DNA from: Rheinheimera sp. EpRS3
GTDB taxonomy: Bacteria > Pseudomonadota > Gammaproteobacteria > Enterobacterales > Alteromonadaceae
Direction of reading: 5' to 3'
Assembly: GCF_001513785.1 (NCBI RefSeq)
Contig: NZ_LNQS01000011.1
Coordinates: forward strand, 1-64,000
Length of the DNA: 64,000 nt
Positions 53,964-57,362 of this stretch are shown here, one piece after another. The number at the start of each line of letters is the position of its first letter. Position 1 is the stretch's first letter. A program made the translations under genes and the position numbers. The notes under the pieces are model-generated. The model was not told the DNA's origin. It made no database searches and saw only the letters and a program-made list of their open reading frames with translations.

Positions 53964-54886
53964 GCGGCATCTCCCATCAGGCTGATAAAGATATCTTCCA
54001 GCGAGCTTTCTCTGGTATGCAGATCACTAAACTCTATGCCCTGAGTATTCAACTGGCGTAACAAGCTGGTGATAGTGGCCTGCTCCTGCTGCGCATCAAA
54101 GGTGTAAATAAGTTGGTTGTTGTCAGCAGATAACTGCAACTGATAGGCCGACAGCGCAGCCGGTATTTGCGGTAATGGCGTTGTCAGTTGCAACAGTAAT
54201 TGCTTCTTACCCAGCTTTTGCATCAGGCTGGTTTTGTCATCTACCAGGATCAATTTACCGGCACGGATCACGCCAATGCGGTCGGCCATATCTTCGGCTT
54301 CTTCAATATAATGGGTAGTAAGAATAATAGTCACGCCACTGTCGCGCAGCCGGCGGATCATCTGCCACATATCACGGCGCAGCTCTACATCCACCCCGGC
54401 GGTAGGTTCATCCAGAAACAAAATTTGTGGCTGATGTGCCAGCGCTTTGGCTATTAAAACCCGGCGTTTCATGCCGCCGGACAACGTCATAATTTTGCTG
54501 TCTTTTTTATCCCACAGTGACAAGTCGCGCAGCAGTTGCTGCAAATAGGCCGGGTCAGCCGGTTTACCAAATAAACCCCGGCTAAAGCTAACGGTATCCC
54601 ATACTGTTTCAAAAATACTGACCGACAACTCCTGCGGCACCAGACCGATGCGCTGGCGGGCCTTGCGGTACTGCTGCACTATGTCCAGGCCGTCTACCAG
54701 CACAGTGCCCTCGCCCGGGTTAACAATGCCGCAAATAATGCTGATTAAAGTAGTTTTGCCAGCCCCGTTCGGCCCCAGCAAAGCGAAAATTTCACCACGG
54801 CGAATATCCAATTGAATGTTTTGCAGCGCCTGAAAACCGGATGGATAGGTTTTGCTTAAGTTGTTTACCTGAATAATAGATTGCAC
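53960..54886 (-). CDS. yadG: ABC exporter ATP-binding subunit (YadG-like)
   Basis: The 308-residue protein has Walker [10 protein letters not shown] (about 38-46), a Q loop (VPQELSV), the signature LSGGMKRR, Walker [13 protein letters not shown] and an H loop in [13 protein letters not shown]-terminal extension (about 225-308) is typical of this drug- or polymer-export class. It is the first gene of the yadG-yadH pair. The pair converges on the KAS III operon, which makes export of that operon's product possible but unproven. Confidence 0.92.
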
Positions 54887-55155
54887 TTTACCCCCTATAA
54901 CCTTGAGATTGCCGCTAACAGTTTAGCTTAACCCCTGCCAGAAGCTGGCAGCAGTAGAACAGCATCAGAAGCTATGACCTCAAGCTAACTTAAGGTCAAG
55001 TGTTTATTTTGGGAAATAGGAAAAGAGATTGGGGCAAATTAGCTAATTTGCGCGGATACCTCAGTCTCTGCCCTCAGTTAATTCCTTCAAATACATGGGT
55101 AGAAAACTACCTATACAGATTTTTTACACTCTCTGGCTTAGGAGTAAACTAAGGT
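54887..55155. other. AT-rich intergenic segment with a perfect palindrome
   Basis: No gene is seen. The promoter of yadG must lie in the first 100 bases. A perfect 18-base palindrome, GCAAATTAGCTAATTTGC, occurs at 55034-55051. The base composition is visibly more AT-rich than the flanking operons. Confidence 0.5.
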
Positions 55156-55353
55156 TTATGTTGCTATACCAACCAGGTTAACAAAATAGAGAAACTGTGG
55201 CATGCCGTGCACGATACCATAACACGCAACCACTACTTCAAAACGACGGGTGATTTACCGGAGCAGATTGAGCACTTTATGGATAACGCCGCTCTATTTC
55301 CGGGGGCTGCTATGGCTTACAGCGGTTATAGCAGAGCTATGATCAGCATTTAG
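55156..55353 (+). pseudogene. IS630-type transposase remnant (C-terminal fragment)
   Basis: Translation in the frame of 55156-55353 gives YTNQVNKIEKLWHAVHDTI, then TRNHYFKTTGDLPEQIEHFM and a stop at 55351. The Y-x-N-x-x-N-x-I-E-x-L-W pattern (normally YSPxLNxIExLW) with the following RNHYFKT segment is the end of IS630/Tc1-type DDE transposases. The first three quarters of the gene and recognisable ends are missing, so it is a decayed relic. Confidence 0.7.
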
Positions 55354-55500
55354 CGTATGAAACATTTTGCTAAGAAATTAACTCTTGCTTCAAGCTAAAA
55401 AAATGTAAATTCAGTATTGATATTGCCCTTTGATATGTTGAGGGCAACTAATTACGTTATAATTTTCAGCCAAACTTGTTTTATTTTTGATTACAAAGTG
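55354..55500. other. AT-rich spacer between transposase remnant and peptide promoter
   Basis: No reading frame or structure stands out. The sequence is strongly AT-rich. Confidence 0.4.
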
Positions 55501-55529
55501 TTGACTTTATTTTTTTGGCTAAATATTAT
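55501..55529 (+). promoter_or_regulatory. Promoter of the cysteine-rich peptide gene
   Basis: A -35 TTGACT (55501-55506), a 17-base T-rich spacer and a -10 TATTAT (55524-55529) give a start near 55536 and a leader of about 49 nt. Confidence 0.68.
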
Positions 55530-55584
55530 GAGTTGTTTAGAAAAAACTAAACACTAGTAATAAATTGAATCATGAGGGTTGGAA

Positions 55585-55737
55585 ATGAAGAAAAATAAAA
55601 AGACTGTAGTATTTGCTTTTGTCATAGCAACGTTTACATCAGCTGCCGCCTTTGCTATTGATAATTGCAGTGGACTGGAACTTTGTAACTGGTGGCCATC
55701 ATACCCGATGTGTCAAAATCAATGTCATGTGCAGTAG
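55585..55737 (+). CDS. Small secreted four-cysteine peptide
   Basis: The 50-residue protein has a basic start (MKKNKK), a hydrophobic stretch (TVVFAFVIATFTSAAAFA) and a signal-peptidase site after AFA (about residue 24). The mature peptide would be about 26 residues, IDNCSGLELCNWWPS onward, with Cys at 28, 34, 43 and 47, two adjacent Trp and an uncharged tail ending CHVQ. Four Cys in so short a peptide suggest two disulfides formed in the periplasm. A promoter and a terminator bracket it exactly, supporting a real gene. A TTGGA lies just upstream of the ATG. I do not recognise the family; a secreted bioactive or signalling peptide is possible. Confidence 0.65.
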   Translation: MKKNKKTVVFAFVIATFTSAAAFAIDNCSGLELCNWWPSYPMCQNQCHVQ

Positions 55738-55767
55738 TTTAAGCATTCAATAATTGAGTGTTAATGC

Positions 55768-55795
55768 AGGGCTGTAAAGGCCCTTTATTGTTATT
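55768..55795 (+). terminator. Terminator of the cysteine-rich peptide gene
   Basis: AGGGC (55768-55772) pairs with GCCCT (55780-55784) around TGTAAAG and is followed by TTATTGTTATTG. It lies 31 bases after the stop codon. Confidence 0.65.
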
Positions 55796-56057
55796 GTTGT
55801 ATTTTCAGATAGCTCAATAAATGGGTCTAATAATGGTGCTGTGTTATGTAGCTATTATGTACCTGATTACCAGTAAACGTTTTATAGCAGGATAAAAAAC
55901 AGCAGTCGCGCAAAATGCGGCCTTACCCTGCCTGAAAAACAGTAATACTGCCAACCAAAAGTAAAAGGCTAAAAAAATCCGGTTTTTTTGTCCATCCCAA
56001 GTGTGTGAACGGCATGAACGCTGCACAGTTTTGCATCAACTTTTATAAATAAAAATA
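55796..56057. other. Intergenic region downstream of envZ
   Basis: No convincing gene is seen. An A7/T7 hairpin (AAAAAAATCCGGTTTTTTT, about 55972-55990) could act as a weak terminator for envZ on the minus strand or from the plus side. A 24-codon hydrophobic plus-strand frame near 55820 lacks a ribosome site. Confidence 0.4.
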
Positions 56058-57362
56058 CTAGCGTAGCGGCAAATACACCGTTACCACTAAGCCGCCGTAA
56101 GCGTGGTTATGCAGCGTTATATCGCCATGGTGCATATCGACTATTTTCTTAATAATAGCCAGCCCCAACCCCGAGCCACCACTGCCGCGGGCTACATCGC
56201 CCTGGGTAAAGGGTTCAAACATGGCTTTCATCTGGCTTTCCGGTATGCCAGGGCCATGATCACGAATTTGCAGGTAAATACGTTTACGGTTGCGCTCATA
56301 ACCAGTGGTTATTTCAATATCGCCATCGCTGTAACGCAGGGCGTTTTCCAGTAAATTATTCAACAGCCGCTTTATGGCAATCCGCCTTAACATCACTTCC
56401 GGTAGGTTATCTGCCAGCACGGTGGCAATATGGCGCTGCTGTAAATGCTCGGCCTGCACCAGCTCCCGTACCAGGGTGTTAAGGTTTTCTTTCTGGCCGG
56501 GTTCTTCTTTGTGGTGGCGCAGGTAGTCAATAAACTGGTCGATAATGGCGTTCATATCTTCAATATCGTTGATAATGCCCTCACGGATCCAGTTATCCGG
56601 CTCTTGCATCATCTCCGACGCTAGCCGGATACGGGTTAGCGGGGTGCGTAAATCGTGCGATACGCCGGCCATCAGTAAGGCCCTGTCCTGCTCCAGCTGG
56701 CGAATGCCGCGCGCCATATAATTAAAGGCTTTGGTTACAGCAATAATTTCGGTAGAGCCTTTATGCTCTGGCAAAGGTGGCGGAAACTCGCCGCCGCCTA
56801 CCTGTAATGCCGCCTGCTGCAGGCTTTTTAGTGGCCGGTTTAACTGGCGGGCAAACAGCCAACCGCCACCAACGCTTAGCACACCAATCATCAGCAAATA
56901 AAACGTCAGCGGTGAAAAGTCGGTTTCATCCAACCCGGTAAGCGGTACTTTTACCCAATAATGTGGTGCCTGCGGTGGCCGCACCCAAAAAGCATAAGTT
57001 TCGCCCTGCGCTACCCGTACTTCAGCGGCGCCACCCAACTCACGCGACATCAGATCAGAGAAATAACCATAGTAACTGGCCTCTGCCAGGCCCTGCTGTA
57101 ATGCTTGCTGCTCGGTATACACTTCAATGCCGGTTGCTTCGCGAAAGCGCTCCGTCAGCTCATTAGACAAAACCGATTGCTGATGCCCAACATCAATAAA
57201 AACCACTTTAATTTGCTTGGCAATCAGGTGATTAATTTGTTGCGTGGTGGGTTTTATCACATAAAACGCCACCGAAAGATAAGACACTAACTGATTGATC
57301 AGCAGCAACAGGCCTATCAGGAAAACAGTCTGGCCAAAGGCACTGCGCGGGAAGCAACGCAT
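56058..57362 (-). CDS. envZ: Osmosensor histidine kinase EnvZ
   Basis: The 434-residue protein has two transmembrane helices (about 14-35 and 153-172) with a periplasmic domain between, then HAMP (about 172-225), HisKA with His236 in [20 protein letters not shown], and HATPase_c ([33 protein letters not shown]). It phosphorylates and dephosphorylates OmpR. Its ATG directly follows the ompR stop. In E. coli the same order, ompR-envZ divergent from greB, is found. Confidence 0.95.

What the first reader, a model, noticed from the sequence alone, without database searches (positions are those of the whole stretch)
55501..55795. Complete transcription unit for a secreted 26-residue, four-cysteine peptide
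A sigma-70 promoter with a 17-base spacer, a 49-nt leader, a 50-codon gene with a clear signal peptide and a terminator are packed into under 300 bases in an AT-rich gap beside a transposase relic. The mature peptide has Cys spacing C-x5-C-x8-C-x3-C and a Trp pair. Small disulfide peptides of this size can be bacteriocins, toxins or signals, but the sequence matches no family I recognise.
Basis: partly seen in the sequence, partly recalled or inferred. Interest (0 to 1): 0.75.

Follow-up and report, generated by a model that had tools for sequence, protein, structure and literature searches.

The report
Orphan gene for exported four-cysteine peptide
A Rheinheimera bacterium carries, in a scrap of DNA between two transposon relics, what looks like a complete tiny gene for an exported peptide with four cysteines; no relative was found in the collections searched, so it is probably a real but unexplained strain-specific gene rather than a recognised toxin or bacteriocin.

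Summary
The promoter alone is unremarkable. Signal peptide, SD, ATG and at least 4 mature cysteines occur together in 0 of 3000 shuffles; in 641 kb of own and relatives' loci no other ORF passes, even at 3 cysteines. So it is probably a gene. The host is Rheinheimera, judged by a neighbouring gene. No homologue was found in 31 genus, 295 family, 394 order or 369 class genomes, genome contigs, IMG/VR, plasmids, phages, Pfam, NCBIfam, PHROGs, PADLOC or PDB; weak hits look like chance. The gene lies in a 450-bp AT-rich scrap between an IS630 right end and a decayed rve-transposase tip, within an insertion hot spot that holds a CDI-type locus in one relative tested (another by ORF size). Best reading: an orphan Sec-exported peptide, oxidised in the periplasm, carried as strain-specific cargo. 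Bacteriocin or toxin activity is possible but unsupported. 'Secreted' should read 'exported to the periplasm'. Cysteine conservation could not be tested.

The parts
55501..55529 (+). sigma-70-type promoter-like site, TTGACT-17-TATTAT
   Evidence: a 10/12 site occurs in 482 of 5000 shuffles, so weak
55574..55577 (+). Shine-Dalgarno-like GAGG, 7 nt before the ATG
55585..55737 (+). 50-codon ORF for an exported four-cysteine peptide (stop included)
55585..55656 (+). Sec signal peptide, 24 residues, ending AFA (inferred from the sequence; my crude rule cut at residue 20)
   Evidence: sequence
55657..55734 (+). predicted mature peptide, 26 residues, C-x5-C-x8-C-x3-C
   Evidence: sequence; no relatives
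55768..55784 (+). terminator-like hairpin followed by a T-rich tail
   Evidence: 29 of 5000 shuffles give one of this grade
55176..55354 (+). IS630-family right-end relic; the IS end is at about 55354
55807..56020 (+). decayed 3' tip of an rve-type transposase gene plus its downstream repeat

Best explanation
A real, lineage-restricted (orphan) gene. It is transcribed from its own promoter as a single-gene message; the 50-residue precursor is exported by Sec and cut by signal peptidase after AFA; the 26-residue product is oxidised by DsbA-type enzymes to two disulfides in the periplasm. It arrived or survived as cargo in a transposon-scarred hot spot that in a relative carries a contact-dependent-inhibition locus. 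My guess at its job is a small envelope-acting peptide used in competition or stress, staying periplasmic or leaving by a TolC-like route. Shown: the ORF, its signals, its surroundings, its absence from the relatives searched, DsbA-family genes in the genome. Inferred: transcription, export, disulfides, any activity.
For: ORF and signals in place; signal peptide + SD + ATG + at least 4 Cys in 0 of 3000 shuffles; the only ORF with signal peptide, SD, ATG and at least 3 mature Cys in 641,328 bases of overlapping own and relatives' loci; coding frame fits the window's codon usage better than the other two frames; the CDS is richer in G+C (39%) than the stretches next to it (25%, 29% and 33%); 29 of 5000 shuffles give such a terminator; three DsbA-family matches in the genome; hot-spot site.
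Against: No homologue in any collection searched, so no test of selection or of cysteine conservation; statistics are post hoc; codon support is weak (87 of 2000); the promoter is no better than chance; the scrap lies among decayed elements; no partner gene suggests a function; the single-sequence fold is uninformative (mean pLDDT 64.3, one long helix).
Confidence: 0.6

Rival explanations
1. Chance ORF in AT-rich relic DNA: a random open frame that happens to look like an exported Cys peptide; transcription, if any, is noise.
For: No homologue or sister copy; sits between decayed transposons; 482 of 5000 shuffles give an equal promoter; 122 of 3000 shuffles give some signal-peptide-like ORF; 87 of 2000 open shuffles match its codon score.
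Against: 0 of 3000 shuffles give signal peptide + SD + ATG + 4 Cys; unique in 641 kb; uncommon terminator (29 of 5000).
Confidence: 0.3
2. A special case of the best reading: a bacteriocin or toxin made with a Sec signal peptide, folded by DsbA and released through an outer-membrane channel, acting on neighbours (works like, not related to, known Sec-exported disulfide peptides).
For: Size, signal peptide and cysteines; hot spot occupied by a CDI-type locus in a relative; strain-restricted distribution.
Against: No immunity or export gene seen in the 450-bp scrap; no family match; no homologue.
Confidence: 0.15
3. A small metal- or haem-binding periplasmic peptide: M-C-x3-C-H resembles copper sites or an unusual haem c motif (both recalled) rather than a disulfide.
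For: The sequence ends MCQNQCHVQ. A paper search for CXXXCH with heme and cytochrome returned 10 papers (listing only).
Against: No cytochrome or metallochaperone family match; chance translations among the weak hits show the same C-x3-C-H (L015, L026, L117), so it is easily met by chance; in the one paper opened the term was not found in the main text.
Confidence: 0.06

Closest known systems
E. coli heat-stable enterotoxin STa type of maturation (works-like comparison only)
   Same: Small peptide that DsbA oxidises in the periplasm and whose release needs TolC (passages of PMC8973357); Sec export of it is stated there for enterotoxins in general.
   Different: No sequence relation: no family or precursor-structure match here and only chance structure hits for the mature part; four cysteines, not six; no evidence of release or toxicity.
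Class II microcins (recalled)
   Same: Small peptide genes of Gram-negative bacteria, sometimes with disulfides.
   Different: They use double-glycine leaders, ABC export and an adjacent immunity gene (recalled); here a Sec signal and no partners seen in the scrap.
Orphan small exported proteins of bacteria in general (recalled)
   Same: Short, signal peptide, no homologue, in a variable region.
   Different: Nothing that I can show sets this one apart, except the four cysteines and the Trp pair.

Membership tests
Class II microcin | double-glycine leader (recalled definition) | tested here: not met
   leader ends AAAFA, Sec type
Class II microcin | adjacent immunity and export genes (recalled definition) | tested here: not met
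   only a 46-aa TTG frame and an overlapping 33-aa TTG frame besides it in the scrap; the flanking ABC ATPase is met at the same locus in relatives that lack the peptide, so it is not a partner of it
Lipoprotein | lipobox Cys directly after the signal peptide | tested here: not met
   first Cys is the fourth residue after the AFA site
Any Pfam, NCBIfam, PHROGs or PADLOC family | profile match | tested here: not met
   0 families at E up to 10 in each library; HMMER filters drop many weak matches
Cytochrome c | CXXCH haem motif in a cytochrome domain | tested here: not met
   only C-x3-C-H present; no profile match
Disulfide-bonded exported peptide | cysteines paired in the mature peptide | not testable with these tools
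   DsbA-family genes exist; pairing unknown
Disulfide-bonded exported peptide | cysteine conservation among homologues | tested here: inconclusive
   no homologue found

The most novel reading that the evidence does not exclude
A new, single-lineage two-disulfide peptide unrelated to known ones, used in interbacterial competition and dropped into a site that elsewhere in Rheinheimera carries a contact-dependent-inhibition system.
Probability: 0.1. Interest if true: 0.6.

Novelty: new member of a known kind. Interest (0 to 1): 0.3.

Why it matters
If expressed, it is a clean test case for how orphan exported peptides arise and persist: one gene, one promoter, one terminator, between two transposon scars at a hot spot that in a relative carries a competition system. 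As it stands it is one of many unexplained small orphan genes.

Tried and rejected
Rejected: homology through weak hits. The genus, family, order and class searches gave 36 non-self loci (L003-L026, L096-L105, L116, L117). My first translations read the loci of minus-strand matches on the wrong strand and covered only part of them; one search translated all 36 on the right strand. None is an intact short frame with a signal peptide and four cysteines. For 21 of the 36 I checked the frames across the match: for 19 of them the longest frame there is a different one, of 209-736 aa, so the match is a shadow reading; these include the recurring '..LCNMWNRYP..' reading, which lies opposite frames of 527-669 aa. 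The other two, L003 and L097, lie in the long frame itself. Resemblances told in full: L005 (same genus) reads C-x7-C-x8-C-x3-C then a stop, the last two spacings as here, but the match holds a TAG and overlaps a 209-aa frame of the other strand; L015, L026 and L117 end in C-x3-C-H and are shadows of long frames; L098, L102 and L103 share 'DWWPSY' but each holds a stop and was not checked further. L004 (107-aa frame) and L097 (377-aa frame) look like real exported proteins that match mainly in the signal peptide. DNA hits of 27-57 bases to the AT-rich scrap in 8 other genomes of 394 were not followed; they are short and AT-rich. Rfam gave one sub-threshold hit, snR82, E 0.47, taken as chance. 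PDB hits of the mature peptide (E 0.45 to 1.7) are taken as chance. Paper searches (listings and abstract starts only) showed nothing on this peptide; passages of PMC8973357 were read; PMC9084895 had no passage with the term.

Full report
What is there. The described unit is in the sequence at the stated place: promoter-like 55501-55529, SD, ATG 55585, 50 codons, stop ending at 55737, hairpin 55768-55784. The leader is a textbook Sec signal (MKKNKK, hydrophobic core, AFA|ID), and the mature part would be IDNCSGLELCNWWPSYPMCQNQCHVQ.

Is it more than chance? Element by element the promoter is not (482 of 5000 shuffles of the 231 nt upstream), while the terminator is uncommon (29 of 5000). The ORF is the strong part: 2719 of 3000 shuffles of 55354-55840 give some ORF of 35-110 aa, 122 one with a signal-peptide-like start, 9 one with an SD as well, 4 one with signal peptide and four mature cysteines, 1 one with SD too, 0 with ATG too. 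In the whole window four ORFs pass signal peptide + 4 Cys with any start; only this one has an SD and only this one an ATG. In 641,328 bases of fetched loci of 3.9 kb and more (overlapping; own genome and relatives) it is the only ORF with signal peptide, SD, ATG and at least 3 mature cysteines. Codon usage favours the frame modestly (87 of 2000 open shuffles as good or better). The rules are my own crude ones, set after seeing the ORF.

Whose DNA. The neighbouring kinase gene places the window in Rheinheimera: its protein is 100% identical in R. hassiensis and in a gammaproteobacterial MAG, and 99% in R. pacifica DSM 17616 and R. oceanensis. The genome has 4.4 Mb in 14 contigs.

Surroundings. 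Left of the gene is an IS630-family right end: the six copies looked at in relatives diverge from each other at or within a few bases of the position that corresponds to 55354, so the AT-rich DNA beyond it is the flank of that insertion. On the right, from about 55807, the sequence aligns with the last codons and the downstream region of an rve-type transposase gene that lies on another contig of the same genome and in relatives. The peptide gene thus occupies about 450 bp between two transposon relics. The larger gap between the EnvZ-type kinase and the ABC ATPase is an insertion hot spot: 1.2 kb here, 3.2 kb in G017, 4.1 kb in G027, 6.6 kb in G016, 24.5 kb in G024 and 27.0 kb in G005. In G014 the two genes are also within 3 kb but in another relative orientation; in G003 and G015 they are on different contigs; only 10 of 31 genus genomes have the ABC ATPase at E up to 1e-100. 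In G024 the gap holds a ShlB/FhaC-type transporter and a giant exoprotein with a TPS domain and a CDI toxin end; G005 has two large ORFs of similar size (domains not tested); G017 and G027 have subtilases there.

Relatives. None found. Genus: 6 of 31 genomes match at E up to 0.1, one being itself. Family: 22 of 295 at E up to 0.05, one being itself. Order: 10 of 394 at E up to 0.01, one being itself. Class, mature peptide only: 3 of 369 at E up to 0.01, one being itself. The family, order and class sets are samples and overlap. All 36 non-self loci were translated on the right strand (searches had minus-strand matches wrong) and none is an intact signal-peptide, four-cysteine frame; 19 of the 21 checked are shadows of longer frames and the other two lie in the long frame itself. 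The nearest in spacing, L005, has C-x7-C-x8-C-x3-C but a stop inside the match and a 209-aa frame opposite. Genome contigs: 567 stretches matched an octamer pattern, none a relative. IMG/VR: 52 stretches, none a relative. Plasmids and phages: no match to the protein or to the DNA scrap. Pfam, NCBIfam, PHROGs, PADLOC: 0 families. PDB: nothing with the precursor, three chance-level hits with the mature part. The fold predicted from one sequence is uninformative.

Reading. I take it as a probable orphan gene for a Sec-exported peptide that is oxidised in the periplasm (three DsbA-family matches in the genome). What it does is open. The hot spot's use for a competition system in a relative makes a competitive role a fair guess, but nothing in the 450 bp supports it, and a chance ORF remains at about 0.3. 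Since no homologue exists to test, the cysteine pattern carries no evolutionary weight yet.

Noticed in passing
window 54886-56058: The interval between the ABC ATPase and the EnvZ-type kinase is an insertion hot spot in Rheinheimera (1.2 to 27 kb), holding a CdiB/CdiA-type locus in G024 and perhaps, by ORF size, in G005, and subtilase genes in G017 and G027.
   Followed up: partly
window 55841-56020; L092 4676-4921; L069; L093: Repeat that is the 3' end of an rve-type transposase gene plus a downstream repeat; in the own genome another copy lies just past a 1416-aa ORF that reads like a haemagglutinin-repeat exoprotein (by eye, no profile run) and a small ORF.
   Followed up: partly
L069 4920-5615: IS200-like transposase (Y1_Tnp; REP-associated type by recall) within the hot spot of G016.
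   Followed up: no
window 55078-55134: A stretch of about 57 bp with copies in several relatives, often near contig starts (G018), probably another insertion-sequence end.
   Followed up: no
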